Source: Cephalotus follicularis (Eukaryota; Streptophyta; Magnoliopsida; Oxalidales; Cephalotaceae). Taken from it: a stretch of DNA of 64,000 nt. A model generated the notes under the pieces. It was not told where the DNA came from. It made no database searches and saw only the letters and a program-made list of their open reading frames with translations. The stretch lies in the NCBI GenBank assembly GCA_001972305.1, contig BDDD01000028.1, positions 830,334 through 894,333 on the forward strand, written 5' to 3'. Position numbers and translations under genes: made by a program. Of the stretch, positions 16,542 to 36,628 are shown piece after piece; the stretch's first letter is position 1; each line of letters opens with the position of its first letter.

Positions 16542-16865
16542 TTCAATCATTAATAACTCTGCACATATTGACTCTCTTATTTAATCATTAAGTCAGTGCT
16601 TTAAAATGAAAAATATGGGCTCTTTAACTAATTTTTAGGGAATTGAGTTGCATCGTACTGTCATGGTCTTGTTTCTCAATCAATCGATATATTGGACCTT
16701 CTTCACAAAATAAATATGGTTGGTTGCAAGCCGGTCTCTTGACCAACGTCAACTACAAAACTTGGTATTCGACACTTTATAGAAGCATCGTTGAAGCTCT
16801 TCAACATGTCACACTTACTTGCCCTGATATTGCATTTTCGGTGAATCAAGTTTGTCAGTTTCTCA

Positions 16866-17100
16866 CACTACTAGAAATAGGAGATTTAGCGACCGCTTTT
16901 TTGGGCGACCGCTTTATCGACCGCTTTGGCGGTCGCTATAAGTCCTTTGCAAAAACCATGGTGTCTTACCCTTCGCCGACCGCAATACCATAATTACCGA
17001 CCGTCAAAAGCGGTCGGTAATTAAATGATTACGAATATTATTAATTGTTGATTTAGCAACCGCTTTTTTTTAATTAGGGACCGCTAAAGCGGTTGCTCAT
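16866..17100. repeat. Outer CACTA left subterminal hairpin repeats
   Basis: Repeated ACCGC/GCGGTCG words in both orientations form perfect small palindromes such as CGACCGCTTTGGCGGTCG. In CACTA elements these are the TNPA-type binding repeats. Confidence 0.85.
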
Positions 17101-17456
17101 TCTTATTATTTCGAATTTATTGGGATTGTAATTTGTACCCTTATTTCCTATCGCAGACTCCTCCTTTATTTCCTATCGACGCATTAGTATTTCCAGATGA
17201 ACTGGCATTGAAGCAAATGTAACCGCATCAGACCAGCCTCATCCTCTCTGATTCGAAGAAGACGCACCAAAATCGAGCTGCCAAAACCCAAACCGAAATC
17301 CCATGACCTCGATCCACATATACCTAAATACCCAAATGCCCACATCGATCATCCTCTAGGCTTCGATTATCCTCTGGCATTCAATTTTATGGTTGCTGTC
17401 ATCGTCATCCTTCAACAAACCCAACCCCCCTTCTCTCTCCTATAACCCCTGTCGTT
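17101..17456 (+). other. Leader-like internal sequence of the outer CACTA
   Basis: C-rich, A-rich text with many CCAAAACCC and CATC words that looks like a plant 5' UTR. It is continuous with 26506 onward once the inner CACTA and its GTT duplication are removed. No ORF or known exon is recognised. It may be a captured first-exon/UTR piece. Confidence 0.35.
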
Positions 17457-17715
17457 CACTACTAGAAAAGGAACATTTCCCGACCGCTTTTTTTACCGAC
17501 CGCTATGCCGACCGCCCTAGCGGTCGGTAAATGCCCTCAACCGAAATCCTGTTGGTTTCCCATCGACAACCGCATTTTTTGGAATTACCGACCGCCAAAG
17601 CGGTCGGTAATTCCAAATTTACCTATATTATTATTTATTTCATCTTAGCAACCGCGTTTTGTTTTACCGACCACTATGGCGGTCGGGAATTGTCTTATTT
17701 CGAATTTATGCAAAT
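17457..17715. repeat. Inner CACTA left subterminal repeats
   Basis: Hairpin words such as CCGACCGCTTTTTTTACCGA and GCGGTCGGTAA in opposite orientations, the same family as the outer element but with different spacing. Confidence 0.85.
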
Positions 17716-17729
17716 TTTACACGGTTCTT

Positions 17730-18095
17730 TTTTTTTTAAATAAAACTGTAAAACTTTAAAAAAACCCAAAACAGAACAAAAATTAAAACTCTCAGTTTCT
17801 CTCTCTCGCTTCCACCTCGATCCACACCTCTCTCGCAATCTCTCTCTCTCTCTCGCTTCCACCTGACCGAGCCCCCAATCTCTCTCTCTCTCACGTCGAT
17901 CCACACCTCTCTCGCAGCACATCAGGTTGCTACATCTCTCTCCGTTGTCTGCCTCTCTTGTTCTCTCTGTCATCACCGGCACCGAAAAAGCCAACATCCC
18001 ACCTGCTACCTCAACATCTCCAAGTAGGTCTCTCTCTCCCTCGCAGCCACCAACCACCAACAACCGGCGTCGGTGGCAGGGACAGCAGGTAAGTT
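17730..18095 (+). promoter_or_regulatory. CT-rich leader and first exon-like segment in the inner CACTA
   Basis: After an A-rich stretch there is a CT-rich leader (about 17790-17960) and then a GC-richer segment ending in a consensus donor, ACAGCAG followed by GTAAGTTTTT at 18090. It looks like a plant 5' UTR exon, but has no long reading frame and I do not recognise its source gene. It may be the captured promoter/first exon of the kinesin-4 gene or another gene. Confidence 0.4.
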
Positions 18096-18552
18096 TTTAT
18101 AATTTTCAGTTTTTTTTTAGATTTATTAGGGTTTTTTTGTTTTATTTGGGGTTTAAAGTGTTAGGGTTATTTTCAATTTGTTATTGATTTTGATCTATTA
18201 GCATAATTTTACTGGCGTAGAAATTTGACTGTTGTATATATATACTAAAAATCATTTTACTGGCAGCAGGTCAAAATTTAGGACTTAAAATATGTACTAA
18301 AAATCATTTTAGGAAAGTGATGAACAAAGAAACAAAAATAAGTTATCAACTTCAGCTAATTTAACTTATATGTAAAACCAGTTAGAGATTTGGAACTTAT
18401 TCTTTATGTAAGACTTTCACAGAAATGCAAGTGTTCTTTGCAATAATTAAATTCCAGCAAGTTAGATTGATTTTATATATAATGATAGATCATGTGTTTT
18501 GTCTGTACCATACATGCAACGCAGCTAGCGTACGTAGGATAGATTAGAACCG

Positions 18553-18600
<48 letters not shown>

Positions 18601-19401
18601 AAACCATATACTATAATTTATAGTATATGTTGTCAAAGACGTTGTCGAAGAAGTCCCTAAGTTGCAGTTGACAACATGCACCTAACGAAAGCCAAAACGT
18701 TTATGGCGATTAAAATGTGTTAGCAGTTGACTGTAAATGCATGGTTACTACGTGAACCTGCGAAAAACAAAAGGTATGCGTATGCTCTGTTATGTACATT
18801 GTTTTGCAGCATGGATATGTGACTTGTTTGCCTGCAAAGCTGTAACAATAGTAGTAGAATCGATTGTTATTATTATTGGAGAAAGGAAATAAACACTCGC
18901 TTACCCATTTTTCATCTCTCTCTCTAGAGGGCGAGGTTTTTTCTGTTATCAAGTGTTTGCTCTTGTCCTAGTCAGGCTACTTGTTAAATTTATTTTCTAT
19001 TGATTGATTATTAAACGTATATGCCAATTAGGAAAGGATGATATTAATGAACGACAATACTATCAAGATAGTAATAGTAATAAACTCATGAAATATAACC
19101 TTAATAAGTGCCTAAACCCTCAAACTTAAAATGAATATTTAAGATCATCTAAGATTGAGTTTTTAAAAAAATATGTATAATTGAAATGTTGATGTGGGGA
19201 TCATTAGAAACCTTTAGTGGGGCAAGTTCGCACTAAAACAGGGGAAAACTTCGCTTAACGTGTCAGCTATAATAAGCTCATTGACTGGTTTTCAATTTCC
19301 TTACAAAACTATCACAAATGATTAGGTACTAATCGTGGTCATGTAATTATACTATTGTTAGTGTTTGGCAAGATATATACAAGGTTTTACTGGACTAATA
19401 G
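18096..19401. other. Intron-like A/T-rich sequence, no gene seen
   Basis: Contains a (GA)n microsatellite of about 41 bp (18556-18596). Nothing coding is supported. The stretch lies between the leader exon and the start of an LTR at 19402. Confidence 0.5.
18556..18596 (+). repeat. (GA)n microsatellite
   Basis: About twenty uninterrupted GA units. Confidence 0.95.
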
Positions 19402-22137
19402 TGTAAGAGCCCTAAATATTATAGAATATATTTATTGGGCCTTGTAATTATTTTCCCACTTTCTGGGCTGGATCCGAATTTATTATGGGCCTTAATGGAG
19501 TATAATTTATGAAAGTGGGCTAAAGGAATCATGCTAATTTTATTGGGCTGAATCTAATGGTGTAATTAGATTCTTGGGCTTTATTGTGGAAAGTGTAAAA
19601 CGGCCCAAGTGAGGCCCAATTGTTGTAGCTAGTCCAAGGCCCAAAGAATAGCCAATTTCTTCATATCTCGTGAAATCTCTAGAGGCTTCCATTTGTTAGT
19701 ATATAAGGACAATGTGTGGCTGTGATTGGGGCTTTGGGCATTCCTACATACTTTAGTTCCAGAAATATCGAGAGGAGAGAGAGGAAGAATAAGGGGGGGG
19801 GGACCTGCTGATGGTAAAGAAGGAGAAAGAAATAATGAGAAAGGAGCTCCCTGGAGCCAAAGAAGAAGAAGCAATGACAAAGAGCAATGGAGGAGGAAGC
19901 AGAGAAGGGAAGAGCTCTCCAATTCCAGGTAGGATCTACTCCTACTCAGTGCTCTACTTTATGTGTATTAGTTATAATTGCTATAGTGTGGTTGCTCTTG
20001 TTGTAAATGTATAAAGGTAGAGGATTGAGAGGGATTTAAGGACCTTCCATGATTGATGGGTATTAGGCTTAGTGAATACTGTGTACTGATACAAGGAGTA
20101 TTGGACACTAAAAGCGTGTGTGACGAGTGGTGCTTCCATGTACGCCACGCTTACGCCCAACTCTATATTGTGGGTATTGTGAGACTGATACAATGCAGAG
20201 GACGCATCCTTATTATGAGTATAACACAGTGCCGAGGACGCCCAATGTTGTGCATCTTGCAAGTGGCCGAGGTGTCATACACCACAAGTTATGCACTGAG
20301 GTTGTGCCAATATGATGAACCTCTATGGTCCACCACCTACGTCTCACGTCTACAAAGTCCTGAGCTCCAACTGCTGTGCATGCGTCCTCAACAGGGGGAA
20401 TTAGATGCACATCCTCTGCCATCGTCATGTACATGGAGCGCCTCTGCCTTGCGCTTAAGGAAGACACCATGGCCTTCCTCTGGCAGGGGTCCGAGGTGTG
20501 CCACACCTGGGTGGTGCGCCAAAGAGCCAAGATGCCCGAGCATCCTCCTGCCGAGGTACCCTTATGCCGAGGTGCCAAGTCCAGAGCTCCCACGCCCGAG
20601 GAGCCACGGCGCCGAGCTTCCATGGTTGCCGAGATGCCACACGCAGTGGTGCCTAGCTTCCTCCCTGTTAAGGCGCCCGAGGTGGCAGGTTGTCGAGTAG
20701 CCATGGTAGAGGTGGCAAGCATCCATGGCTGCAATGCTTGAGCTCACCAAGCATGAACTTCGGGCATGCTACAATTGAATGACGAGCTCCTCTGCCATTA
20801 ACATCTTGTGTGCCAAGTTCTCCAATCCGAGCTCCATGGCATGCACCTAAGGGTGCCAGCTCCAAGCTTTCCCACAGGAACGTGGCCCGAGCTTCCCGTC
20901 ATGCATGCATGCGTCCTCAAGCATGCAGCGTTATAGTTGAGCTCTCCATGATACCCACGGCGCATCGCACCTTGTCCACATGCAAGCTCCAGAGCTCATT
21001 ACCACGGGCGTCCAATGCATGCACGTCCAAAATGAAACACCCGAGGAGCAATGGCCGTGGAGTAACGCCGAGGAGCAATGGCCGTGGAGTAACGCCGAGG
21101 AGCCAACCGCGGTGATGACCAGAGCTGAGGTGTCACGCTGAGCCCTCCATGAGTCTGAGTCACCATGGCCGAGCTCTGAAGGTGCCGAGGACCCTGCAAC
21201 TATGTCTTGGACATATTCAAGGTGCTGAGAATGACATTTCCGAGCACCCTTTATGCATGGTCGAGCTCTCTCCATCGTGAGCAAGCGGTGCCGAGATTCC
21301 GAGAGCATGTGACGCCACGTTGCTTGCGCTCTTCCCTGTCATGGTACCCAAGCTCGCCAGGTGACGTCCAAGCACTGTAAGCGTCCGAGGACACCCATCC
21401 AAGGATGCGCCAGCGTGTAGTGTGCATACAAGGCCACATCACGCACGCAAGCAGCATCGGGCTCCTCCTCGGCAAAGTCTCGAACCCATCTCATGCAGGC
21501 ATCCCAAGCATGCTTTAAAAAGGATTTGGCGCCAAGTGAGTAATGAATAATCACTAAAGGAAAGAATAAAAGAAAAAGAAATGGTGAGTGTGAGTGATGG
21601 AGGTGACGGCTGGTAAAAGAATTTAGTAATAAAATAATAGGAAGTAGTGTAATAGATGTGGTGATAAGTGCATGCTCTTTGACGTTACATGTCTTCTCGG
21701 GCAGATATTTTAAAGTAACGCATGCATGCATGGAGAGTGATATTGCCTGCATGCTCTTGTTGATAAATAAATATTTATATGCATATGTGGTCGGCAGTGC
21801 AAGGATTAAGCAAAGGATATGACTATGCATGCGTCAGACACGATTGAGGCGAACCTTGTGCAAGGGGAGTGCCCTGCATAATGGTGAGCTCTGATCTGAC
21901 CTAAGAAATGGCTTAAGGAAGCCAAAGAATAAAAAAGGAAAATAAGCTAAGAAGGAAATAGAATTAGAAAATAAAAGACTTAGATAAATGATTCCGAGCT
22001 GGTGAGCCCAACAGGGGAGAATTCCGCCGAGCAGGTGAACCTACGGGGTGAACTCCGCGAGGCAGGTGATCCTCGGGCGAACCGCCAATGGTGAACCTAA
22101 GGGTGAATTCCGCCAAGGCTGGTGATCCAAGGGGTGA
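19402..22137 (+). mobile_element. LTR-type repeat, forward arm of an inverted pair
   Basis: It starts TGTAAGAGCCC at 19402. The segment 19860-19960 (GGAGGAAGCAGAGAAG, then CTCCAATTCCAGGTAGGATC) is nearly identical to 31130-31190 in the LTR block at 30703, so both belong to one family with a leader exon ending in a splice donor AG/GTAGG. From about 20050 to 21500 the sequence is dominated by degenerate CCGAGG/CATGG words. The arm is cut by the N gap. No gag or pol is seen; the long frames on both strands here come from biased composition. Confidence 0.65.
21997..22137 (+). repeat. Inverted repeat, left arm
   Basis: About 141 bp that match the reverse complement of 23147-23288 at roughly 95%. 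Within it a 30-40-bp phrase (GGTGAACC..., GGTGATCC...GGGTGAA) recurs four times, so it is itself a small tandem repeat. It stops exactly at the N gap. Confidence 0.9.
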
Positions 22138-22162
22138 NNNNNNNNNNNNNNNNNNNNNNNNN
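22138..22162. other. Assembly gap (25 N)
   Basis: A fixed-length run of N lies between two inverted copies of the same LTR-type repeat. The true distance and content are unknown; the inverted arrangement may itself be an assembly effect. Confidence 0.98.
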
Positions 22163-22510
22163 TGTACGAGTCAGTGATGATTAGATCGTCTCATTCTCAT
22201 GTACAATTACGAACAAAACGAAATAATAACAAGAATAAGTGATAGTATACGTTTAGATATGTATTCTGGTAACTCTACCCATCGGAGACGGGGGGGTTCG
22301 GAATATACGTATAACAAATTTTAGACTAACAGAATTTAATTTCACCTGTACTAACGATACCAAACACGTTCTTAGTATTTTACTGTAATATTATTTCTTT
22401 ATATTATGTATTAACTCTAAAGTAGTTCAAATTATTTGGTTGTAGAGACCTTACGTCGTCGAGCCTGTGTGCGCCAGGGTCTTGGCTAGTCTGTCTTCAC
22501 ATTGTTAGTT
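22163..22510. other. Unclassified A/T-rich sequence after the gap
   Basis: No coding sequence or termini recognised. Confidence 0.4.
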
Positions 22511-24890
22511 ACACGCCCCAAATCGTGGGATGGGCCCCACGGTTCGACACGTGGCAATCCGTACAATCATCATAAAAATAAACATAAAATTTAAAACTTA
22601 ATAAAATAAATAATTCAATATCCTTTATTTAATGTGTGGATTACAGACCCAATTCGAATCATATAAATTACATACTACTGTGAACCAGAATAAAATAAAT
22701 ACATAATTATTTTCTGCAATTTATCCACGGAAGCGTACTGTCGAGGAGGAGAACTTACTGTACTCTTTATCCTTGCCGCTGCTGCGATGTGCCTCCGCTA
22801 CCTGTACCTGTACCTGGCCCATTCAAAAGAATGGGTCAGTAACCCTGAGGGTTGTGTAGGTCACCCCATACACGGGCACATACCAGAGGAACAAGCAAAC
22901 ACAAGCAGAGAAGAAAAATAATATAAATGTGCATGTATATAAATCATAGTCCATAGCATAATCATCATCATTTATCCTCGGACTGCTCTACTCGAAACAT
23001 ACATGACAATCATATCAGAGGAGTCTAGTCCGGTCATCCTATGGTCATGGTCAATATACATGGTTCACCTTTGGGATCACCAGCCCGTGGAATTCTCCTC
23101 CGGTTCACCTGCTGAGAGGTTCGCCCTTCGCTCACCTGCTCGCGGTTCACCCCTTGGATCACCAGCCTTGGCGGAATTCACCCTTAGGTTCACCATTGGC
23201 GGATTCGCCCGAGGATCACCTGCCTCGCGGTATTCACCCCTTGGGTTCACCTGCTCGGCGGAATTCTCCCTAGTCGGGCTCACCAGCCTGGTATTATCCT
23301 TAACCTCCCTTTACTAATTCCATTCATTTCCTTTAACATTTATAATCCTTTACTAATTCTATTTATTCTCTTTAACCTTTATAAGCATGCTTTTAAATTC
23401 CATCTTCTGCAAACACATCAAAACGCCACGAGCTACGAATGAAACGCATGCATGGACTTAGGTGCTAAACGCACCGTACGACCTTGATCTTTAAATTTCT
23501 TCTTCTTCGTTGGTTTCATGCAGACTTAACATTTGAGCTTTTGGCGCCAACTCACCTTGATCTTCCTTCATCCAAGAACCATGGTGCTTGATGCCGCGCA
23601 CCTGAGACAGTGGCAGTGGACAAAGATACCCTTATACTCGGTCCTCGGACATTGGCGCTGTTAGCAATGGACAAGCTCCATGAATGCTGGTCGACAATGG
23701 CGCTCTGTAATGGCGCGTTCTCGGGTAGAGCAGGGGAGAATGCAAGGCGCCTTCGGGGAGAGCTCAGACGCTGTTCCATGCTTGGGATGCATGGACCTGC
23801 TTCCTCGGACGCCTGAGCCTAACGCGTCCTCGGCAGCGTCTTCGGAAACGTACTGGCTCATCTCTGGCGTCATGGCAGAGAGTGCTACACATGGCAGAGG
23901 ACAAGGACGTCCACTGCGCATGGTGTTCTCAGCATCTCGAGTCCTCTGCTCCTGGGCTCAGCCGGTGACACTTTGGCAGGTCATCTCGGCGCGTTGGCTC
24001 CTCAGGCATAACTCACAGACTTGCAGAGGACGGAACGCATGCACTTCAGGAAGTTTGACGCCATGGCAGAGGAAGCCATGGTCGTTTCCTCAAGTGCAGA
24101 GCAGTTCAGGCGTGGATGCTCGGCCGACCAGAAGCACTGTGCTTATCCTCGGCCATTCACACTTTGGCGCTTGACAACACTGATGAGCCATGGTTGTTTC
24201 CTCATCAGCACATGGCAGTGGAAGCCCAGGTGCTTTGCATGGCAGAGGAGAGGCCCAAAATTCAGCGCTAATGGCACCTCGGCGTCTTGGCTCTACAAGC
24301 ATTGATCCACAAACTTTGCAGAGGATGCGTCCACTGCTCTATCCTCAGTCATGGAGCATAGCGCACAACACTGCATGCCTTCTCGGACCATCACGTTAGT
24401 ACATTCAGGGGTGCCCAGCACCGTGGCATCTCGGGTGCATAGCGATGGCACCTCGGACGCATGTTATTGGTTCCTCGAATGTTGCCAATGGTTCATTGCA
24501 CAAGGACAGTGGCACGACATCTCTATCTTTGGCAGTGAGGTTCGGGAGTGGTAGAGGAGATGGTGCTGGTCGGCTAGGAGCTCAACCCATAGTCATGCTA
24601 GATTGCAAGGCTAAGCAAGCTCATCACCCCTTTCCCCACACCTCTGCCAATGGCGTCCTTTGCATGCACACTATACATGCATGCCGAGATGCACTAAATG
24701 GAGGAGGAGGCCAATCACGTGTAATGCAACTCATGCCTTGGTCCTTATTCATGTATATGGTAACAAAGAATAAAACGCATACAATTTCACAGACAACGAC
24801 CAAGTAGCAAGCGTACTTGTGAACTTTCCTCGTTTTTTTAGGTGTATAATAAAGTGGAGAAAAAATATTAGATACTTCTTGACAGGTGAT
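22511..24890 (-). mobile_element. LTR-type repeat, reverse arm of the inverted pair
   Basis: On the minus strand it ends ATTTGGGGCGTGTAA (plus-strand TTACACGCCCCAAAT near 22511), a typical LTR 3' end. The segments 23147-23288 and about 23500-23560 are inverted matches to the forward arm (for example TTGGCGCCAA near 23540 and 21528). From 23600 to 24600 the same word appears as CCTCGG, which confirms the orientation. No gag or pol is seen. Confidence 0.6.
23147..23288 (-). repeat. Inverted repeat, right arm
   Basis: Reverse-complement partner of 21997-22137, with the same four-fold internal phrase. Confidence 0.9.
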
Positions 24891-24899
24891 TAGCATGAT

Positions 24900-25035
24900 A
24901 TGATTTAGATTTAGGTGTGGTCTGCTAAGGGCTGAGCCCAAATATACCAACTGTGTTTTTCTTTACAGGGGGCATAGTCCGATAAACGAATACATCATGC
25001 CCGATTTTTGATAGAATTTAAGAGTTAGAATTTAT
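24900..25035 (+). repeat. Conserved LTR 3' segment (GGGCTGAGCCC box), copy 1
   Basis: Contains GGGCTGAGCCCAAATATA, then TTTACAGGGGGCATAGTCCG and ATGCCCGATTTTTGATAGAA. The same order is found at 35120-35255 on the plus strand and at 61830-61930 on the minus strand. Here it runs straight into the kinesin intron, so the last 200 bp of the LTR are missing. Confidence 0.85.
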
Positions 25036-25097
25036 TTGATTTGATATTTCTGCATGCTTGACTTTGTTTTACCATACCGTTAATTATTTTATTGTAG

Positions 25098-25311
25098 CTT
25101 GTGTTAGAGCAATTGCAAGCTGAGCTTCTTTTTTATCGTGGTAACGCTGGAGCACCATTTTATAATCTACTTGTATATATGCATGTTTAATTTTTTCAGT
25201 TTATGTGCAGATGATATTGAAGATGAGAAAAGGGAGCTAGAACATTCTTCTCTTCAAGAAACATTGGATATGGAGCTCAAAGAGCTGGATAAGAGACTTG
25301 AACAAAAGGAG
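25098..25311 (+). pseudogene. Kinesin-4 (KIN-4) coiled-coil exons, captured fragment
   Basis: Two exon pieces are seen. The first follows an acceptor (TATTGTAG at 25097) and reads LVLEQLQAELLFYRGNAGAP, then loses similarity near 25160. The second, 25211-25311, sits between TTTATGTGCAG and a donor (GAG/GTTAATT) and reads DIEDEKRELEHSSLQETLDM followed by ELKELDKRLEQKE. Both match the stalk of plant kinesin-4 proteins (FRA1/KIN-4A type), which walk on cortical microtubules and affect cell-wall deposition. There is no motor domain. The pieces should be separated by several more exons, so sequence between them has been lost, but introns are kept: this is a genomic, not cDNA, copy. It lies inside the inner CACTA, beside its right subterminal repeats. 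Assignment rests on remembered family sequences. Confidence 0.82.
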
Positions 25312-25639
25312 GTTAATTACTGTCTAAATTGCAATTGCTAGTGTCACGTATATATTACTACCTAATTGTACACAAATTGCTATAAGCCTGTTGATCATAT
25401 TTTTTCTAATGAATTGGCAATTTTTCTTTTATACTGTTGCTCACGTAGTAATATTTGGATCAGCACATCGGAATCAAAGAAAATGCTAATTGTAAATCAT
25501 CGTAGTGGTTGCTTGTCCACCAAACAATCTAATTTATAATAGACCAAAAGTGATTGGTCACAACATCCACGGTAACAAAATTTATATAATTCTCACAAAC
25601 CGTAATCTTATAAATTTAATTTAATTTAAAAAATTAAAA

Positions 25640-26502
25640 TTATTGTTAATTGACGGCGGTCGGGAAATTTATAAAAAAACAATTTATTTTATTTAAAATT
25701 TTAAGTTAGCCGACCGCTCTAAGATTTTCCAACCGTGAAGGGCGGTCGGAAAACCGTTATAAATGAATCTAATGTAAAAAATTCTTGTTAATTCCCGACC
25801 GCTTTTTGATTTACCGACCGCTAAAAGCGGTCCGCAAAAGCTCATCAATTTAATTTAAATTCAAATATCTTGCTAATCACCGACCGCCTTACGATTTACC
25901 GACCGCTAAATGCGGTCCACGAACATTCATCAATTTAATTTAAATTCAATTTTTTGGCTAATCACCGAACGCTTTTTTTATTTACCAACCGTTAAAAACG
26001 GTCAGCGAATACTCATCAATTTAATTTAATTTCAAATTTTTTGATAATCGTCGACCGCTTTTTCATTTACCGACCGCTAAGAGCGGTCCGCGAATACCCA
26101 TCAATTTAATTTAATTTTAAATCTTTTGCTAATTGTCGACCGCTTTTATATTTGCCGACCGTCAAAGGGGTCGAGCAAACCATTATAAATTTAATTTAAT
26201 TTCGAAATTTCCTTCCATTCCCCGACCGCTCTTGGTATTCGTGGACCGCCTTTGCGGTCGGCAAAACCCTCCCAAAAAATTATTCTAGCCAACGTCAACA
26301 GCAACCGCTTTTCCATGCCGACCGCTTACGCGGTCGGGAATTGATGGGGGCGGTCGGTGAAATGGTCGGCGTATAATCAGCGACCCATTCATAGGCGGCC
26401 GTCATGGCGGTCGGGGAGGCGGTCGGGGAATACTTTCGCCGACCGTTTTTTACTTTTCCCCGACCGCTTTGGCGGTCGGGAATTCCCCTTTTTCTAGTAG
26501 TG
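25640..26502. repeat. Inner CACTA right subterminal repeats
   Basis: About 860 bp in which a 90-100-bp unit recurs roughly seven times: a hairpin of CCGACCGC(T)n and GCGGTC(C/G)G followed by an A/T-rich spacer with CATCAATTTAATTTAAATTC. The repeats become denser towards the terminus. This is one of the longest CACTA subterminal arrays in the window. Confidence 0.9.
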
Positions 26503-26505
26503 GTT

Positions 26506-27733
26506 GCCCTTTGTCGGTGGAGATCCGACCGCCAGCCTTTATTTTGACTCTGAACTCAAGTGACTTTCTCTCTTTCTTTTTTCTTTTTTCCATCTCAGGA
26601 CTACATTTCTTTACAGTTGCGTTTGGATTTTACAGTTTGTGGATTTGACGCCGTTAAGCGTTCGACAGTGATTTATGTGATGATGGGGCTATCAATTGGT
26701 GCTTGTTCAGTTCATGGGTGCGTTTGAATATGCTTACTGGTTTGGGTTAATTGAGGTATGTGTATTCTGTTTTTTTTTTCTTCTGATTTGGTGTGTTCCA
26801 TCTCAGGCCTACATTTCTCTATGCTTTCTATTTTTTGTCTTATTATACTGTTGTGTTGATGATGGGGCTATCAATTTGGTGGTTGTTGATGCTTCAGTTG
26901 CTATGGGTTTCCATGGGTATTTGGTGGTTCAATTTGGATTTTGGTTGGCTTGTGGTGTATTGAATTTTGACAGCGGCTTCGATTAGTGGTATTAGGGTTC
27001 AGGGTTTCCATGGGTATTCTGTTTTTTTTTTTGTCTGATTTGGTGTGTTTTGTGTTGTGTTGAGACTGGGTTTAATTGACTTTTGGGGTTTTGAAGAACT
27101 CGTGGTGAAGTAATTTTAATTGACTAATTTTGTGTTTGGTAAAGTATTAGGTAAGTTTGAGTAATTAAATCAGTAGAATATATTCAAGACTTTTTTTTTC
27201 CTTTGGTTGTAGCGTTGAATTTTTTACTGTTAAATTTTAATTTTGTAATAATAAATTTAACTTTTTCTTTGGTTTATAAGAAAATTAAGTGAATAGAAAT
27301 TAATTAAGATATGGATTTGTAGGCTGTGCAAATTGAAAATTGCTAAAAGGGTATGTTGGGGTTGGCTTTTTCTTGTGGTATGTGTTTAACTTTTATGGGA
27401 AGTTAAAAATATTCAAATTCAAAACTCAAAGTTTCTATCTTTTTGTATTTTATTAAGTAAAACTATGGAAATCATTATTTTGAATGTGCTTTTGTGTTAG
27501 GTAAAGTAGTAATTGGTGTTCCTTCTTTTTGAAGTTTTTGTTATGTTTCCCCGCTTAGGTATTGTTTTTCACATGAGTATCTTTCTCTTTCTTCAAGTAA
27601 AAGTTTGCTTCTACATATGCATGGAGAATTAATCTTTTTACAGTCATTTTTTGATTTCTTGATAATATTTTTTCTTTTTTTATTGCTGCATCATTTTGCC
27701 TGGATTGAAGATTTACTTTTTATACCTTTTGAG
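26506..27733 (+). other. Outer CACTA internal sequence: leader and intron-like, partly duplicated
   Basis: T-rich intron-like sequence. Two diverged copies of a segment lie at about 26580-26705 and 26770-26885; both contain CCATCTCAGG(A/C)CTACATTTCT and GATGGGGCTATCAATT. No protein is supported; the apparent 96-residue frame is a product of T-rich sequence. Confidence 0.45.
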
Positions 27734-27863
27734 TGCAACAATTCTATGAGAACTTGTCAAGTAAGGCACGACCAAAGCCTAGAAGCCCCTCACACTCTTC
27801 CTCTAACAAGGAAGACCTTGGTCAGTGACTTGAAGTAAAGGTCCAAGCTGCTGAGCAGAAAAG
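27734..27863 (+). pseudogene. T-complex protein 11 (TCP11)-like exon, captured fragment
   Basis: A single exon bounded by TTTTGAG (acceptor, 27733) and AAAAG/GTTAAC (donor after 27863). It reads QQFYENLSSKARPKPRSPSH, then SSSNKEDLGQ and, after an in-frame TGA at 27826-27828, LEVKVQAAEQKR. This matches the N-terminal conserved block of plant TCP11-domain proteins (typically QQFYE.LSSKARPKPRSPS, EDLGQRLEAKLQAAEQKR), where the TGA replaces an arginine codon. Plant TCP11 proteins are about 1000 residues and of poorly known function, so this is a small fragment. It lies in the outer CACTA, 370 bp upstream of dihydropyrimidinase exons, and keeps its splice sites. Confidence 0.83.
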
Positions 27864-28233
27864 GTTAACATCTTTGTTGTTTGTGTGATTTTGTGTGTGT
27901 CATGTTGACATTATATGAATTACTTAGGCTACAAACCAAATTTTACTCCTTCCCACTTATGCAGATATGACATCGCAGCAGTTTTTTTTTATAGGGTTTA
28001 CATTTATCATGGCTTAACTTTCGGATTTTTTTAAGTCTTACAGCTCTTTCGGGTCGGAATAGTTTCATTTGATGACTAACTGTACCCCCAAAGTTCTCCT
28101 TCAAGTTTAAACCTTATTATGTTTAGCTGCCTACATTTGTTAGGGCGTAAAGATATTAATAGTCAGCTTTTAAAATTTTGTTTTATGTGTATACTTTTTG
28201 TTTTATGTGTAGTCACCTTCTTACTAATGGCAG

Positions 28234-28348
28234 GTTTTCAAGCCTACCAAAACAAAGCTAAGGTTTCTTGCATGGATTATGGTTTCCATATGGTTATTAC
28301 CAAATGGGATGACGTTGTTTCAAGGGATATGGAAATTATGGTTAAGGA
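28234..28348 (+). pseudogene. PYD2: Dihydropyrimidinase fragment, internal exon 1
   Basis: Bounded by an acceptor (AATGGCAG at 28233) and a donor (AAGGA/GTAACC). It reads GFQAYQNKAKVSCMDYGFHM and VITKWDDVVSRDMEIMVKE, matching plant dihydropyrimidinase just after the metal-binding part. That enzyme opens the ring of dihydrouracil in pyrimidine breakdown. The N-terminal exons, with the HxH zinc ligands, are not seen in the window. Confidence 0.9.
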
Positions 28349-28437
28349 GTAACCACTGCTGTTTCATCTTACCCTATTGGATGATATTTCTTGATTATTG
28401 AACTAAACAAAGTCATTTTTTGTTTCCCAACTTGCAG

Positions 28438-28649
28438 GTATCAACTCTTTCGAATTTTTCATGGCATACAAGGGGGCACTAATGGTCAGTGACGACCTCC
28501 TACTAGAAGGACTCAAAAGGTGCAAATCTCTTGGTGCTTTGGCCATGGTCCATGCATAAAATGGTGATGCTGAAGTCGAAGGGTAGAAAAAAATGATTGA
28601 ACTTGGTATTACTGGGCCTGAAGGACATGCTCTTTCAAGGCCCCTAGTG
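28438..28649 (+). pseudogene. PYD2: Dihydropyrimidinase fragment, internal exon 2
   Basis: Bounded by AACTTGCAG and a donor (CTAGTG/GTAATTC). It reads INSFEFFMAYKGALMVSDDL, LLEGLKRCKSLGALAMVHA and, after damage, ELGITGPEGHALSRPLV. The lysine of FFMAYKG corresponds to the carboxylated metal-bridging lysine of the family and is kept; the histidine in MVHA is also kept. Two in-frame stops replace conserved glutamate/glutamine codons: TAA at 28557-28559 and TAG at 28584-28586. The exons that should follow are absent until the last exon at 35498. Confidence 0.92.
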
Positions 28650-29802
28650 GTAATTCACATATTATGTCATCATTTAGATGAACTTCTAGTGCCTGCTTTT
28701 TGAGTCTTCTCACTCATCTGTTTTCTTTGGTTACATAATCAGTTGTTTTTTTTTCTTCTTTCTCTTACACTTTTTCATGCCTTATACCATTTTCTTTTCT
28801 TTTTTTTCGTAAAGGGCCATGGTGTTGGTGTTTATTTCTTGCATTTATGCAGTTTTGTGATCGTATTTATTGAATTTGTTACTTTGTCTAAACTTTCTTT
28901 TGTTTTCAGCAAAAGAATGCAAGCTAGTATATCATTTCCTGCACCAGTAGTTTATCTATCTATGTTTCTTACTCTAGCCTTGTATGTATTGCTTAGATAT
29001 ATAGAGAATAAATGAGAGACCAGTTAAATGAATGTGCTATTCAGAAGTCCTTGTTATACCTAGTGTCTTCTAAGGTCAGCAGAGCAGATGTCCAGTTAAG
29101 AGGTTTGGACTTTGCGTTCTACCGATTTTACTTTCTTCCCATATTGGTACGTAATATTTGCTGACCAATAACCAAATTGATCGTTCCAGATATTGTGAGA
29201 ATACATGCACATAATTATCTTTTGAAGCATATGATATGCATAACTTATTTTGTTGGCCTTTCAAAGAAAAAAAAACAATCTTTCAACAATAATAACTGGG
29301 CTGCTATGTCTAAGATTGACAGAGACGGGTGAGTTTGATCTTTTTCTCTTGTATATAGAGTCAATATTAGCCTTTATAATCTATGTGGTTCTAATTGCTA
29401 ATGGAAAAACTTATATAACTATATTTGTGTCCACTTGAATGATAGTTGCTGTTGACTGGATCTTTAATTCTTAGGGTTAATTAAAGAAATTGTTTTTTTT
29501 ACTTTTATGTATTAGATTTGTGCATGATATTGAAGTTCTTTGTCTTTGTTTTTTAAATTCTAAAAAGATATTTAACTAAATACTCTGGTTTTTTTTTTCT
29601 ATATTTTTTTGGATAGATAGGATCGATGGTTGGGTTGGGTTGGGTTGGGTTACACATCCAAGGACAGCGCTCCGAAATCCCCTATACCCCTTCCCCCAAA
29701 TCCGTCATGAAAGTGGGATTTGCAGGTCTTTGGTACATCCACCAAGGACTTTACTAGATAGATTATCAATGACATAATCTTTTGTTGGTATTTATGTTTA
29801 TC
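28650..29802 (+). other. Dihydropyrimidinase intron-like sequence, no gene seen
   Basis: T-rich with no recognisable exon. It includes a short (GGTTG)n run near 29628-29648, too short and of the wrong unit to be telomeric. Confidence 0.5.
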
Positions 29803-30616
29803 CAGGGTTGGATGTAGATAAGGCCCAGGGCACCTGACCCCCCTGGCCTTTAAAAAAATAGTTTAGATATAATATCAAATTTTAAGAGAAACTAAAACCT
29901 TAATGAAAGCGTACTGAGGACTAGAATAAAAATGAAAGTATATCATGTTTTGGGGCAAATATAATCAAAGTTTTTATGTGATTCTTGAAGGTTTCAAGAA
30001 AATCAACAAGGAGTTGTTTCTCTCTTAAATCAAGATCTTAAATGAAGCAAATTTTTATCCATCAGATGTCTCCTTGATTGAGCTATTATATTGTTACTTG
30101 ATAACCAACTTCAGAAATATATTATTGACATGCACACTACTAACTAACTTAGTGAGTTGAATGAGGGGACTGGAGATCTTGCAAAGAAATTAGTCAGGTT
30201 AAAAAAAGATGTCATTTATCCATTCATATATTAGCTTGTAAAACTTGCATTTACTTTACCTATTGTTGCTGTCCTTGTTGAAAGAGTTTCATCAACAATG
30301 AAAATAGTGAAAAGTCGGTTCCAGAATCGAATGAGAGATGATTAGTTAAATGATTGTTTTGTCATATACATACACATATTTAATACTATTGACAGTGAGG
30401 GGATTATGCTGCGATTCCAAAATTATATGAAGAATCGTCAGAAACAATTGTAGAAAAATTTAATAGGTAATATGTGATAGTTTTTATAAACACAAGTTTT
30501 CTATTTTTTTTTATTTGCTTTCTTTGAATTAGTAATCCGAATGATGAGTATGGTTTTAAATTACGTCCTGTAAGTATTTTTCACTCCTCCTGATTGAAAT
30601 CCTGGATCCGTCACTG
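29803..30616 (+). mobile_element. Short hAT element with a transposase tail
   Basis: Flanked by a perfect 8-bp duplication TGTTTATC (29795-29802, 30617-30624). The left end is CAGGGTTGGATGTAGA and the right end, read inwards, is CAGTGACGGATCCAGG, a common plant hAT terminus. The 814 bp include a remnant of the hAT C-terminal dimerisation domain at about 30160-30450: VERVSSTMKIVKSRFQNRMR, close to the TTF/ZMYM1-type hAT transposases (usual form VERAFSAMKIIKNRLRNRMG). Internally deleted, with in-frame stops; it needs a transposase in trans. Confidence 0.9.
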
Positions 30617-33335
30617 TGTTTATCCTTTTAGATGAGAACAATAACTTTTATTTTGATTCTGTATGTAAACTACATGACATAAAGTTATTGGAGAGCCAGT
30701 AGTGTAATACCCGGAATTTTTTTTAAATAATTAAAGGAGGAAAATTGGGCCCAAAATGTATTGGGATATAAATTGAGTTAATAAAGAATTAGGCTTGAAA
30801 TATTCTATGGTCTTGGGCTGATTGATAAATGGATAATGAAGGAATTTGGGCCTAAAACATGTTACTAGTGAGCTATGTTATTATAGAAGGAAGCAAATGA
30901 GACTTGGGCCATATTGGATTGAAGGAAGAGTGGGCCGACTAGCAAGTCCACTAGCCCAATTCAGGAAAATAAATTGTAAGAAATATGGAGAGAATTCTAG
31001 AGTATTCGTCTGTGCCTATAAAAGGAAGGTGAAAACATGGAGAGGGCTGCTGAGCTTTTGTTGAGTGAAAAAGATAAAGAGATGCCATGGTGAAGTGAAG
31101 TAGCTAAGAAGAAGAAGCAATGGCAAGGAGCAAAGGAGGAGGAAGCAGAGAAGTAGAGAGCTCTCCAATTCCAGGTAGGATCTACTTCCTACTCAGTGTT
31201 CTTCCTCTATAAGTGTATTATTTCTAGAGCTATAGAAATGTGTACTCTAGCTCCTCGGAATTAATGATGTACTAGGATTTATGAAATGTTGTATGTATAT
31301 AATATACTGATTTTAGTGAGTAACGCAAGGCGCCGAACATACAGTATTGTGCACTATACTTTTCCCAGGGTAACGTTAGGAACCAATAGTGCAACATAAG
31401 CCCTCAATGCCTTGTACTCAGGCATGCTTCATTGTGCGCATTATGCTCTCTCCATGGTATGCGCATCGAGTAGTGAGATGCCAACCATGGCTCTCCTCTT
31501 TATGTGTAATGCTCACTGCCATGGCATCCACGACGCCAACCTTGGCCTCCACTGGCGCACGATCGGGGTGTGCCTTGTATACGCTAGAGGCGTCGGGGTC
31601 CCTATAGTACCGAAGATTCATGTGCCCGGGGATCCAACCATGGCGTTTCACTGTTCCAGGCGTCGAGCATGCATCCTACCATGCATGCGCCGAGATCACG
31701 CCAGTGTGATAAGCTTCCCATTGCCTTATGTCCGTGCATGCAAAGCCATGGTATCTAACTCCCACGCATGCGTCCTCTGCATGCGACGTAGGCCCCATCT
31801 ATGACCCCTTTACCATAAGCCGAGATGCCGGGAGCCAAACAGGCCCTTCCTCTGTCATGAGTCCGAGGATGAGTGTTCGAGGATGCGCCAGTAACCAAGC
31901 ACAAGTGCCGAGCGTCCATGGCAGAGGAGCTCAGGTCTCCTCTTCAATGGCACAACCGTGGCCTTTCACTGGTATATGCCGAGGTGCCATGTGTCGGGGA
32001 AGCATATGCCGAGGAGGCGAGGTGTCTGAGGAGCCCACCTGCCGAGAAGCCATGGCGCTGAGGTGCCCCTTCCATGGTGCCGAGGTGCTGAAATACAGAG
32101 CATCACCCCCACGGTGACGAGCTCCATCTCTGCGGTGCTCTTATACCCGAACACCATCCCTGCGAAGCCAAAAGTATGCATCAGAGGTGCTGTGAATAGC
32201 CAATCCCTGGCATGCGCCGAGGTGTTGCATGGCTGTCCCTAGGCCACATCGGGTAACATCCGAGCATGAAACACAGCTGAGCTCTCCTCTGCTGCGTGTT
32301 CTGTGCATGCTTTCCCTTGCACCAAGCTCGCTATAGTCTGTTCCTTGGCAGGCTATGCGCTAAACCAACCACCTTGCATGCGTCGTCCTCTGCACAGCGC
32401 CCTTACATGCACACATCAGAGATCCCCTTGGTAAATGACTGAGGCGCCGGCACGAGAACGCCAGAGGACACCAGAGCAGAGAGCTCCAATGTCCTCTGCA
32501 CGCGTCCTCTCCAACGCAACCACCCGATGACACATGACGAGGACACACCAGTACCATGCGCCGAGGAGCCGCGTGCCAGGTGCCATTGTCAGGCTTCCAA
32601 GACGTCATTGTTAACATGTGTCCATAGCCTGCAAAGAAGGCGCTATGGACTGTGTTTGGTTGTTGATATATATTGCACGCGGGTCCCTCGGATGAGGTTG
32701 AGTGTGCGTGCGGGTTTTCTCGACGAGGGCTAGGGTCCGTGCGGTATATGCCGGCCCCTCGTGCGAGGTTTGGATGTTATGCTTACCATAGGCACTCTGC
32801 ACCGGTGTATGAAGGATGATGTACACATCCTGTAGCCTATTGGCCTATATTATTGCTGCAGCGGTTACGTGATGACGCAATGTGATTTGGCGGGGATATG
32901 AGACAGTGACAGGATTGGTACCAACATCCCCTTATATTTTTGTTGTGTATGATTATTTGGGCACATATTACATTCTTGATGTTTGATATTTGATTTATGA
33001 TCGTATCTTTGAGTTTGATATTCAGATACTTGGATTTGTTGTTGACTCTCATGTATTTGATTTCTGTCTTGACTTTGATATTCGTTCAGTGGACTTTGTT
33101 GTTAAGTTCGAGGGTTTCTTTTATGGAGCCCATTTGCTAAGTATTGAGTTTCCTTTCATATATTCATCTTCATTTGTGAATTTCGTTAAGGGATCTTGAT
33201 ATCGCTTGTGGATCTTGTTTTCATTCCTGACTTATATTTATATTGTGGAGCTATTCGTTGAGTATCGAGATTCCTTTCTCGGATTTTTGTTTACACTTGT
33301 GTATCTTGTTTACATTCGTGGATTTCGTTTGTATT

Positions 33336-34600
33336 TGTTGAGTCACAATCATGGAGAGATTGTTGAATCTCAATCATATGTTTTAATGATTACAAATTTG
33401 CATTTAACTTGTTTGCTTAATGTGCAAAACATTAGAAAGCTTGCTGTCAAGACAAAAATCTTCTGCAGGACAAAAGACATTGATCTTCCAGAGAAGAAGT
33501 CGACGTCCGTACAGAAGAAGTCGACTCCTATAAGAAAGACATCGACGTCTTTCTTGCCCAAAGTTACAGGACAAACTCTGGTGAAGACATCGATCCATAC
33601 AGACAAAGAAGTCGACGTCCGTACAAAAGAAGTCGATCCCTTTCCTAAGACATCGACGTCTTTCAAGTTCAACCTGCCAAAACCAGAAAAGACATCGACC
33701 AAGAAAGAAAAAGTCGACGTGATGATCATACAGTCAATACCTGGAGATTTCCCAGAAATGACATCGACGCCTTTTAAAAAGACATCGACGTCTTTTTAAA
33801 TGGACAAACCCGGGAAACATGGAACGGCTAATTGGCGCACTTTCAACGGCTATCAGCTACAAAGACATCGACGCCTTCTGGAAAGAAGTCGACGTCTTTA
33901 TGCCAGCAGAGACTAAAACAAGGCTGCATTAACAAAATGTCATATCCAATATGCCCAAGACTTTTGCAACGGCTCTAATGTGAATGAGGCTATAAATAGA
34001 GGTCAAGAAACAAAAACAAAAAGACTTGAACATACTTTTGATCATTTAACATCCAAGCTCAACTTGCACATCTACAAAGAGAAAAATCATCAAGCTAGAG
34101 TATACACTTTCACATTCAAAGCTTGCAATTTGTTTACACTTTCATATCCAACCTTTGAGAGGTTACTTATAAACACAAACCTTCTTTACAAATCCATCAT
34201 TGTAAAAAGGGTGTTAAAACCCTTTGTGAGAATTTAGAGGGGAGTGAACCCTTGTAAGGTGTTTTGATTGATTTTCACCCGGAACCCAAAATCAAGTGTA
34301 AGGTGTTTGTTTGATTTGCACCCGGAACCCAAAATCAAAGTGTAAGGTGGTTTGTTTGATTTGCACCCGTAAGCCAAAAATCAAAGGTTGCTAGTGGTGG
34401 CTAGTGGAATCTCAAGGAGTTCTTGAGAAAGTGGACGTAGGCACGGATTTGCCGAACCACTATAAATCTGTTTGCATACTCTCTATCCCTTATCTCTTTA
34501 ATTGTTATTATTTGATTGTGTGATTGTTTATATTCATTGCTTAATTTGTTAATTCCGCGAACAAATTGCATTAGTTAAAGGTTGCCATACTTTTCTTTCA
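33336..34600 (+). mobile_element. Solo LTR with GTCGAC micro-repeats, nested
   Basis: It starts TGTTGAGTCACAATC and ends ACTTTTCTTTCA, with a perfect 5-bp duplication GTATT (33331-33335, 34601-34605). TATA box CTATAAATAGAGG near 33991. U3 (33485-33900) has thirteen TCGAC/TCGAT boxes in an alternating pattern (AAGTCGACGTCC, ACATCGACGTCTTT). Another tandem lies at about 34255-34385: three copies of a 45-bp unit with AAGGTG(T)TTTG(A)TTGATTT and CACCCGGAACCCAAAATCAA. No coding domain; the 197- and 119-residue frames here are repeat artefacts. Confidence 0.87.
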
Positions 34601-35119
34601 GTATTTATGAGCCTCGATATCCCTTTGTGGTCTCGATATCCTTCGTGGATCATGATTTGTTATGGATCTTGATATCTTCTGTTAATTTTGACTATCTTTT
34701 TGGATCTTGATTTCATCTTGCTGTAGATTTACATTGTTTTCTACTTTGAGCTTATATTATTTCTCCGTTTATTCAGTATATAGTTATGGGAGATGTGTTT
34801 ATTGTTTCTACTCACTTAGTCATTTGGACTAACCCCCTCTCTTTTCTTTCCCTTCCAGATAAAGACAAGATGGTAAGCAATTGCTGAGTTTTTTTTTTGT
34901 AGATGATGGACCACGAGGGCAGGGCATGCTACCAGGGTTTCAACACATGCATAGCATAACTATATCAACATTTAATTTAGCATTTACTTATGTTTCTATA
35001 TAATGGTTTTTCTTTTATGGTTTTGCTTTTAAATGGCTGAGCCATTCATATTTGCTTTGCATATTTGGATAAAATGGTTGAGGCTGAGCCCAACCTATGT
35101 TTACTGCTTTAAATTGTGG

Positions 35120-35290
35120 TTTGCTGAGGGCTGAGCCCGATTATAAACTGTTGATTCCTCCTTCGGGAGTGTGAATATAAACTGTGTTTTTATTTACAGG
35201 GGGCATAGTCCGATAAACGGATACTAAATGCCCGATTTTCGTAAAAATTTAAGAGTTAGAAAATTTTTCAAAGTTTTGGAAAAGTCAAAT
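35120..35290 (+). repeat. Conserved LTR 3' segment (GGGCTGAGCCC box), copy 2
   Basis: GGGCTGAGCCCGATTATAAA, then TTTACAGGGGGCATAGTCCG, ATAAACGGATACTAAATGCC and AGAGTTAGAA. It lies 150-310 bp before the LTR end at 35435, the same distance as in the minus-strand copy at 61830-61930. Confidence 0.85.
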
Positions 35291-35497
35291 TTTATGAATG
35301 GTTTTGGAAAGTCTTGAAGTAGTTTTTTTTTTAAAGTTATATAGACATATGGCGACTTCCGAACAGAAGTTGTCATATGGAACGTCATATCCGTTCTTGG
35401 TAGGATATCGGTTGTCGTAGGGAACGGGTGTGACACATAACATCCTCAGTCTTCTCATGCTTTGTTTTGTTTCATAGTCTTTGCTATGTTTTCTCAG

Positions 35498-35683
35498 GGA
35501 AAAGTTGAAGTGACAATTGCTGGTGGAAGAGTTGTTTGGGAAAATGATGAACTGAAGGTTGTTCCTGGTTCTGGAAAGTACAAAGAGATGCCTCCCTTCA
35601 GTTATCTTTTTAATGGGATTGAGAAGGCAGATGCTCGGTATCTATCCTCGCTCAGAGCTCCAGTGAAGCGTTCCAATTCTTGA
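35498..35683 (+). pseudogene. PYD2: Dihydropyrimidinase last exon, captured fragment
   Basis: After an acceptor (TTTTCTCAG at 35497) it reads GKVEVTIAGGRVVWENDELK, VVPGSGKYKEMPPFSYLFNG and IEKADARYLSSLRAPVKRSN before a TGA at 35681-35683. This is a complete, uninterrupted match to the C-terminus of plant dihydropyrimidinase. A likely polyadenylation signal AATAAA follows near 35706. The exons between 28649 and here (roughly residues 230-450 of the enzyme, with the other metal ligands) are missing or displaced by LTR sequence. It ends about 380 bp before the right subterminal repeats of the outer CACTA. Confidence 0.92.
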
Positions 35684-36079
35684 TAGTACAAGTAACACTT
35701 GTCTAAATAAAGTTGGAAGGAAAATTATATACAATGCTTGTGAAGTTTGTTTGATTTGTCTTGGTATTTAATAAACACGGATGAGTAAGATCTTAATCAC
35801 TGTAAAAAAAAAAATGTAAATGCTCATTAAGTAGAATGAATATGTTTTCCATTTAAGCGAAGTTATGATTTATTTTGCTTGCTATTCCGATCTTAAAAGA
35901 ATAAACGCAATTCATGAGTCAACATAGTAAAAAATGATTCTCATATTTGTTGAAGAATACAAGAACTGCTTAGTTCTCTAGTGATAAACATGTCTCATCT
36001 ACGGGTAAAAGCCAGAAATCAATAATTATGTCTGATTACATAATGATGATAAGAGATTTAGTGAGTGGTCAGTACAACA

Positions 36080-36625
36080 ATTCCCGACCGCTACAATAAT
36101 CCCCAACCGCTATAGCGGTCGGCAAACAACTCATAAAAATTAATCAAATTTCAAAAATTTATTTTATTTCCCGACCGCTTTTCAAACATTCCCGACCGCC
36201 GGAGCGGTCGGGAAACCTTTATAAATTTTATCAAATTTCAAAATTTTATTTTATTTCCCAACCGCTTTTCAAACATTCCAGACCGCCTGAGCGGTCGGGA
36301 AACCCTTATAAAATTAATTTAATTTCAAAAATTTCTTTTATTTCCCGACCGCTTTCAACATTCCCCGACCGCCAGGGCAGTCTGTAAAACCCTTATAAAA
36401 TTAATTTTCTGACACTGATCAATAACAACCGCATCCCCTACCGACCGTTTTAACGATCAGTAAATGATAAAGGCGGTCGGGGAAACGGTCGGGCTATAAT
36501 CGACGACCCAATTATAAGCGACCGTCATTGCGGTCGGCGCGACGATCGGGGAAACCTTTCGCCGATCGCTTTTAAGGTTTTCCCGACCGCTTTGACGGTC
36601 GAAAAATAGTCTTTTTCTAGTAATG
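36080..36625. repeat. Outer CACTA right subterminal repeats
   Basis: Four to five units of a hairpin (CCCGACCGC.../GCGGTCGGGAA) with an A/T spacer (TTATAAAATTAATTTAATTTC), then a denser GCGGTCGG cluster up to the terminus at 36625. Confidence 0.88.
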
Positions 36626-36628
36626 TTA

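What the first reader, a model, noticed from the sequence alone, without database searches (positions are those of the whole stretch)
16866..36625. Nested Pack-CACTA carrying exons of three unrelated host genes
Between clean CACTA termini lie a kinesin-4 stalk fragment (25098-25311), a TCP11-like N-terminal exon (27734-27863) and three dihydropyrimidinase exons (28234-28348, 28438-28649, 35498-35683). All keep splice sites and introns, so they were taken as genomic DNA. The kinesin piece belongs to the inner element and the other two to the outer, so at least two capture-competent CACTA elements were stacked. No transposase is seen. Transduplication by CACTA elements is known in plants; this particular multi-gene composite may not be described.
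Basis: partly seen in the sequence, partly recalled or inferred. Interest (0 to 1): 0.85.

Follow-up and report, generated by a model that had tools for sequence, protein, structure and literature searches.

The report
Hybrid jumping gene with borrowed exons
A plant jumping gene has been assembled from pieces of two unrelated host genes, with a second jumping gene carrying a piece of a third inserted inside it; likely source genes and intermediate elements are still in the same genome, so the order of assembly can be read, although gene-stealing transposons of this kind are already known.

Summary
A CACTA element (16866-36625) contains a second one (17457-26502, target duplication GTT; empty site kept in sister copies). 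The fragments are host-gene DNA; putative parents lie on three other contigs: TCP11 (C186), dihydropyrimidinase, DHP (C239), kinesin-4 (C503).

(1) TCP11 and DHP were captured separately. Five other loci have the TCP11 piece without DHP; nine of nine examined non-composite, non-parent DHP loci have CACTA 3' repeats beside DHP. Both classes reach further along their parents than the composite, so one fusion (28203/28224, 20-nt partly templated filler) came later. The hybrid is at five loci, two with perfect target duplications besides the window's imperfect one. (2) The kinesin piece is shared by a large family (hundreds of candidate loci) that includes transposase-coding members; it shrank from a capture of about 2 kb and drifts neutrally.

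Transduplicating CACTA elements, one with five genes (soybean Tgm-Express1), are published: a new member of a known kind. Its value is that precursors, product and scar survive together and fit the published neighbour-fusion model.

The parts
16866..36625 (+). outer CACTA element (TCP11+DHP hybrid); target duplication TCA (16863-16865) / TTA (36626-36628)
   Evidence: termini; sister copies C321 (AAC/AAC) and C2163 (TAA/TAA)
16866..17456 (+). outer 5' end and subterminal backbone, part 1 (continues at 26506)
   Evidence: sister copies join 17456 to about 26503
17457..26502 (+). inner CACTA element, target duplication GTT (17454-17456 / 26503-26505)
   Evidence: empty site in L033 (C1820)
19404..24812 (.). 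probable later insert inside the inner element (GC-rich, with a 25-N assembly gap and inverted arms)
   Evidence: 17913-24812 has no match in the inner-family copies L055 and L058; the start at 19404 is by eye, and how much of 17913-19403 is CACTA is not resolved
25065..25400 (+). kinesin-4 derived DNA: three non-contiguous parental pieces (25065-25107, 25107-25178, 25175-25400) joined with 1- and 4-bp overlaps; exon parts about 25107-25172 and 25213-25313
25607..26502 (+). inner 3' subterminal array of about 85-bp repeats and 3' terminus
26506..27079 (+). outer 5' backbone, part 2 (first ~500 bp shared with many other loci)
   Evidence: 80 candidates, 40 scored, 40 matched
27080..28203 (+). 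TCP11 capture (exon 27734-27863), 96.6% to C186:634592-635710
28204..28223 (+). 20-nt filler at the TCP11/DHP fusion; GTTTTATGTGTA across its start repeats sequence at about 28180
28224..30703 (+). DHP capture, 5' part (exons 28234-28348, 28438-28649), 92-95% to C239
30704..35427 (.). insert of an abundant unrelated repeat in the DHP cargo
   Evidence: first 1.6 kb: 2298 candidates, 40 scored; no match in L033, L034
35428..36068 (+). DHP capture, 3' part with last exon 35498-35683
36069..36625 (+). outer 3' subterminal repeats (87-bp units) and 3' terminus CATTA

Best explanation
Two nested CACTA transposons without transposase carry neutral host cargo. SHOWN by comparison of copies: a 1.35-kb piece of a TCP11 gene and a piece spanning 6.4 kb of a dihydropyrimidinase gene entered different CACTA elements. 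The 5' part of a TCP11 element and the 3' part of a DHP element were then fused once, at 28203/28224. The hybrid is now at five loci. An inner element, itself a deletion derivative within a kinesin-cargo family that has transposase-coding members, later inserted into the window's copy. INFERRED: the fusion arose when two compatible elements sat next to each other, lost their facing ends by excision or break repair (the partly templated filler fits end-joining), and the outer ends were then mobilised as one element by transposase supplied in trans.
For: Of 24 places matching the TCP11/DHP stretch, 5 cover the whole fusion, 6 only the TCP11 side (one is the parent) and 13 only the DHP side (one is the parent). 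Polarity: TCP11-only elements follow the TCP11 parent 235 bp past the fusion point, and the DHP element at C2969 follows the DHP parent 331 bp further upstream; DHP-only loci C2969, C3585, C6753 and C1521 reach profile position 48-51 of the DHP exon against 87-88 in the composites listed there. A composite-first history cannot supply that DNA. Parents: C186, C239, C503. Unit mobility: composites C321 and C2163 have perfect 3-bp duplications. Nesting: single GTT at the empty site, 17456-to-26503 joins at seven distinct places. Transposase source: PF02992 lies 4.7-9.7 kb upstream of the kinesin piece on the same strand at C940, C741, C392 and C3171 (capped lists compared by eye); C940 has both ends and CGA/CGA with Transposase_21 plus Transpos_assoc.
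Against: The neighbour step was not observed: no locus with the two precursors side by side was found or sought. Another template-switching route could give the same joint. The outer duplication is imperfect (TCA/TTA). One composite copy (C1820) has degenerate ends and one (C204) lacks the 5' end. A CACTA 5' terminus was seen at one of the five TCP11-only loci (C2855); at three others only the adjoining 5' subterminal backbone was seen, and at C1856 only backbone from 26868 on. No whole DHP-only element with both ends was read. The C940 element lacks the DUF4218/DUF4216 parts of its relatives, so no autonomous copy is proven.
Confidence: 0.85

Rival explanations
1. Fusion by template switching: the hybrid arose in one step when gap repair after excision of a TCP11-CACTA copied from a DHP-CACTA elsewhere, with no side-by-side insertion needed. 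(This differs from the best explanation only in its inferred last step.)
For: Partly templated filler at the joint; 1-4 bp overlaps at the kinesin joins.
Against: None decisive; the neighbour model has published support in Arabidopsis, rice and maize (PMC8903248 section 9 read).
Confidence: 0.35
2. The composite came first; single-cargo elements are its deletion products.
For: The five composites share one junction.
Against: Both single-cargo classes retain parental DNA that the composite lacks (235 bp and 331 bp).
Confidence: 0.02
3. The fragments are decayed resident genes into which CACTA elements jumped.
For: Frames are broken by stops.
Against: Putative parents on three different contigs; the same cargo with the same edges at many loci beside CACTA DNA.
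Confidence: 0.01
4. The kinesin exon is kept by selection as a working part of the CACTA element.
For: The majority exon sequence of 26 copies equals the parent (0 of 101 sites differ) while the adjacent intron differs at 12 of 125 (p 0.0007). In a first sample of 14 copies exon differences from the parent were far rarer than intron ones (biased by the query).
Against: Among the 26 copies 33 of 38 distinct exon changes are non-synonymous or stop (77.5% expected, p 0.24); six copies have a stop or frameshift, five of them sharing one stop; exon and intron vary alike within the family (38 changes in 101 sites, 36 in 125). Over the whole capture, differences shared by all covering copies are 3 of 485 exon sites and 13 of 799 intron sites (p 0.13), as expected if only the parent gene is constrained.
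Confidence: 0.04

Closest known systems
Tgm-Express1 (soybean wp allele, CACTA; abstract and Background of PMC1947982 read)
   Same: CACTA element carrying exons and introns of several unrelated host genes
   Different: Five genes in one 5.7-kb element in the F3H gene; here two genes in a hybrid found at five loci plus a third in a nested element, with precursor classes retained
Pack-CACTA / Pack-TYPE elements (PMC8903248 abstract and section 9 read; review PMC13317346 section 7 and passages read)
   Same: CACTA without transposase, with captured gene pieces; fusion of two elements (groups A, B, AB) is described for rice Pack-Mariner
   Different: Here the fused parts each carry cargo from a different gene, polarity is given by parental DNA past the joint, and the kinesin cargo also rides in transposase-coding members
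CACTA-like elements of Chenopodium (PMC8978399, abstract passage and other passages seen)
   Same: Elements with transposase domains that also hold captured gene fragments
   Different: There the gene fragments were in the 5' region upstream of ORF 1; here kinesin and DHP lie near the 3' subterminal repeats

Membership tests
CACTA (En/Spm) superfamily | 5'-CACTA...TAGTG-3' termini | tested here: met
   outer 3' end has one C-to-T change
CACTA (En/Spm) superfamily | 3-bp target site duplication | tested here: met
   inner GTT/GTT; relatives AAC, TAA, TTT, CGA; outer TCA/TTA imperfect
CACTA (En/Spm) superfamily | short subterminal repeats in both orientations | tested here: met
CACTA (En/Spm) superfamily | Tnp2 transposase in a relative with the same kind of ends | tested here: met
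   C940 element, Transposase_21 E 1.3e-82; completeness of the gene not shown
Pack-CACTA | no transposase in the element | tested here: met
   window, tblastn of five CACTA protein pieces: no hit at E 1e-3
Pack-CACTA | internal DNA derived from a host gene elsewhere in the genome | tested here: met
   putative parents C186, C239, C503
Pack-CACTA | cargo mobilised as a unit | tested here: met
   five composite loci; perfect duplications at two besides the window; two composites have damaged ends
Neighbour-fusion capture model | adjacent precursor elements at one locus | not tested
   no search for adjacent pairs was made
Chimeric transcripts from cargo (as Tgm-Express1) | spliced RNA containing cargo exons | not testable with these tools
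   no RNA data

The most novel reading that the evidence does not exclude
One transposase-coding CACTA lineage takes up host genes repeatedly at one spot, between its last gene and its 3' subterminal repeats (kinesin-4 and DHP independently), amplifies them, and trades half-elements by end-joining, so that multi-gene cargo is built by recombining modules rather than by serial capture.
Probability: 0.3. Interest if true: 0.6.

Novelty: new member of a known kind. Interest (0 to 1): 0.4.

Why it matters
How cut-and-paste transposons take up unlinked gene pieces is not settled (PMC13317346 section 7 allows for an undiscovered mechanism). Here single-cargo precursors, putative donor genes, the fusion product with its scar, and transposase-coding relatives coexist in one genome, so the order of events can be read and the fusion model tested. 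It also shows captured exons amplified, probably to hundreds of copies, by a CACTA family with coding members and without selection on the exon, a warning for gene annotation in such genomes.

Tried and rejected
Selection on the kinesin exon: suggested by copies chosen with an exon-containing query (biased sample), then tested on 30 copies chosen by the neighbouring intron. 25 of these 30 kept the full exon and with the window 26 rows were counted; dropped were L063, L068, L070, L076, L078. Rejected; the result in its favour (exon equal to the parent) is told in the rivals. In one search one motor exon (397674-397799) was wrongly counted as intron; one search repeats the count with it as exon, and only one search's totals are used. 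A different kinesin donor was considered: C2609, C4617, C6048, C143 and C3343 turned out to be further copies of the same capture, continuing into CACTA DNA, and C2375 does not match. Composite-first order rejected by polarity. Flank identity: Pfam gave no family over its cut-off for the flanking ORFs (one weak DUF4026_C match, E 0.037); that they look like Ty1-copia pol is recall and eye only. The KIN-4 assignment rests on a 27-residue peptide with KIF4 as best PDB match and on recall of plant KIN-4 stalks. The 5' end of the C741 element was not found in 3.2 kb more of upstream DNA. Where the insert in the inner element starts was not settled. Species not identified.

Full report
What is there. 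The window lies at C28:830334-894333 of an unnamed 1.58-Gb genome, a plant by its gene content (inference). Outer CACTA: 16866-36625. Inner CACTA: 17457-26502, flanked by GTT on both sides. In sister copies the outer element runs straight from 17456 to about 26503 (loci L010, L011, L012, L014, L016, L017, L019, L033, L035, which are seven distinct places since L011/L033 and L014/L035 are the same), and L033 shows a single GTT at that point, so the inner element is a true later insertion. Two more inserts probably sit inside: about 19404-24812 in the inner element (its start set by eye; 17913-24812 finds no match in L055 or L058) and 30704-35427 in the DHP cargo. The second belongs to an abundant repeat (2298 first-look candidates, 40 scored).

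Putative parents. TCP11: window 27080-28203 is 96.6% identical to C186:634592-635710; Tcp11-domain exons follow at C186:639148-641333, and the exon homologous to 27734-27863 has an open frame there. DHP: window 28224-28941, 29184-29506, 29507-30703 and 35428-36068 match C239 at 92-95%. C239 carries dihydropyrimidinase-type exons covering profile positions 48-442 with gaps; no single exon reaches the family's whole-protein cut-off. The DHP 3' end there has no CACTA repeats (L031, L036). Kinesin: C503 has motor exons at 396235-397799 and the stalk exons downstream; the motor-end peptide matches KIF4 best in the PDB. The three parents are on three different contigs, none of them the window's.

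Order of events in the outer element. One search found 24 places (24 of 24 candidates scored): 5 with both cargos (C28, C321, C1820, C2163, C204), 6 with the TCP11 side only (C2855, C1856, C1951, C815, C728 and the parent C186) and 13 with the DHP side only (among them the parent C239). The five TCP11-only contigs have no DHP match. The TCP11 copies compared with the parent (L009, L014-L017, L019, L033, L035) start at the same parental base (L018:933). The TCP11-only ones go on to L018:2286, the composites stop at L018:2051. DHP copies share the 3' edge at L036:749 (L024 at 744), next to CACTA 3' subterminal repeats in 9 of 9 examined loci other than the composites and the parent (L023-L030, L032, on eight contigs); an exact 3' terminus was seen by pattern in 6 of these 9. 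The DHP loci C1372, C2893, C126, C1521, C5095 and C8787 were not fetched. The C2969 copy reaches L036:7195 while the composites start at L036:6864. In one search the same DHP exon starts at profile position 48-51 in C2969, C3585, C6753 and C1521 but at 87-88 in the window, C321 and C2163. So each cargo was captured separately and the fusion is later. The fusion scar is 20 nt; GTTTTATGTGTA across its start repeats sequence about 20 nt upstream. The stretch with the scar is matched end to end in the five composites, so one fusion spread. The C321 composite (AAC/AAC) and the C2163 composite (TAA/TAA) have perfect duplications; C1820 has degenerate ends and C204 has lost its 5' end.

The kinesin family. 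The 214-bp piece matched 40 of 40 scored places, from 415 candidates; the peptide matched 150 of 150 scored, from 488 candidates. By eye, 4 of the 150 listed transposase places (of 2659 candidates) lie 4.7-9.7 kb upstream of a kinesin piece on the same strand: C940, C741, C392, C3171; a fifth, C235, is about 16 kb away. The C940 element is C940:203743-213754, with CGA on both sides, a 574-aa ORF with Transpos_assoc and Transposase_21 and the kinesin pieces near its 3' end. It gives no match to the DUF4218/DUF4216 parts seen in C741 and C1096, so it is coding but not shown to be autonomous. The C1096 element is 6.85 kb with TTT on both sides. Larger versions of the capture, with a motor exon and the intervening introns, are at C2609 (397295-399041 contiguous) and C4617 (397498-399041); C3343 reaches back to 397049; others have different internal deletions. 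Of the five, four end at C503:399041 and C6048 at 399044. The window's version lacks two internal parental stretches. Among 26 copies that keep the exon, changes are as expected without selection: 33 of 38 distinct changes non-synonymous or stop (77.5% expected, p 0.24), and six copies are broken by a stop or frameshift, five sharing one stop. Against this: the majority exon equals the parent at 101 of 101 sites while the adjoining intron differs at 12 of 125. Over the whole capture the contrast is weak (differences shared by all covering copies: exons 3 of 485, introns 13 of 799, p 0.13), and constraint on the parent gene alone can explain it.

Where cargo sits. DHP at C2969 lies downstream of DNA 93% identical to the C940 element's second coding region, and DHP ends beside 3' subterminal repeats; kinesin likewise lies between coding DNA and 3' repeats at C940. 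That two genes entered at a like position is the basis of the bolder reading.

Mechanism. Shown by comparison: capture, separate origins, fusion, several loci with target duplications, nesting. Inferred: two compatible elements inserted near each other, lost facing ends, and moved as one with transposase in trans. This model is described for Pack-CACTA in Arabidopsis and supported in rice and maize (PMC8903248 section 9; PMC13317346 section 7; the 2019 original was not held). Gap-repair template switching is the main rival.

Known or new. CACTA elements with several host-gene fragments are known: Tgm-Express1 has five (PMC1947982). Transposase-bearing CACTA-like elements with gene fragments are known (PMC8978399). 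Searches for this particular combination gave no paper that describes it among the rows listed: 15 of 60 papers listed; 15 of 25; 10 of 12. The library is partial and only titles, abstract starts and counts were seen for most rows. I call it a new member of a known kind.

Noticed in passing
window 21988-23297: A 25-N assembly gap (22139-22163) beside one arm of an inverted repeat, 88-100% (21988-22137 / 23147-23297); the GC-rich stretches on both sides look like opposite orientations of one repeat, so misassembly or two opposed insertions is possible.
   Followed up: no
window 30704-35427: High-copy GC-rich repeat; begins TGTAATACCC and ends near GTGTGACA like an LTR, but no target duplication seen by eye, and 1.8 kb of parental DHP DNA is missing at the site.
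   Followed up: partly
window 33494-33897 and 34263-34383: Imperfect short repeats (AAGAAGTCGACGTC units; CACCCGGAACCCAAAATCAA and variants three times) inside that insert, function unknown.
   Followed up: no
window 24944-25037 and 35175-35268: A 94-nt stretch shared (85%) between the inner CACTA family and the repeat inserted in the outer element: the CACTA family may also have taken up other repeat DNA.
   Followed up: no
L020 and L023 / C2969:20366-24948: A copy carrying most of the DHP gene (exons for profile positions 48-256 and 371-424 without stops, plus the last exon) downstream of CACTA coding DNA.
   Followed up: partly
L071, L075, L077, L079, L080: A kinesin-cargo subfamily sharing a stop codon and two further changes (at exon positions 59 and 61), evidently amplified after the exon was broken.
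   Followed up: yes
window 16125-16484: Inverted repeat, arms 112 nt, 85% complementary, just left of the outer element.
   Followed up: no
L018:2286 / C186:635945: The TCP11 capture ends at the start of a (CT)n microsatellite in the parent gene.
   Followed up: no
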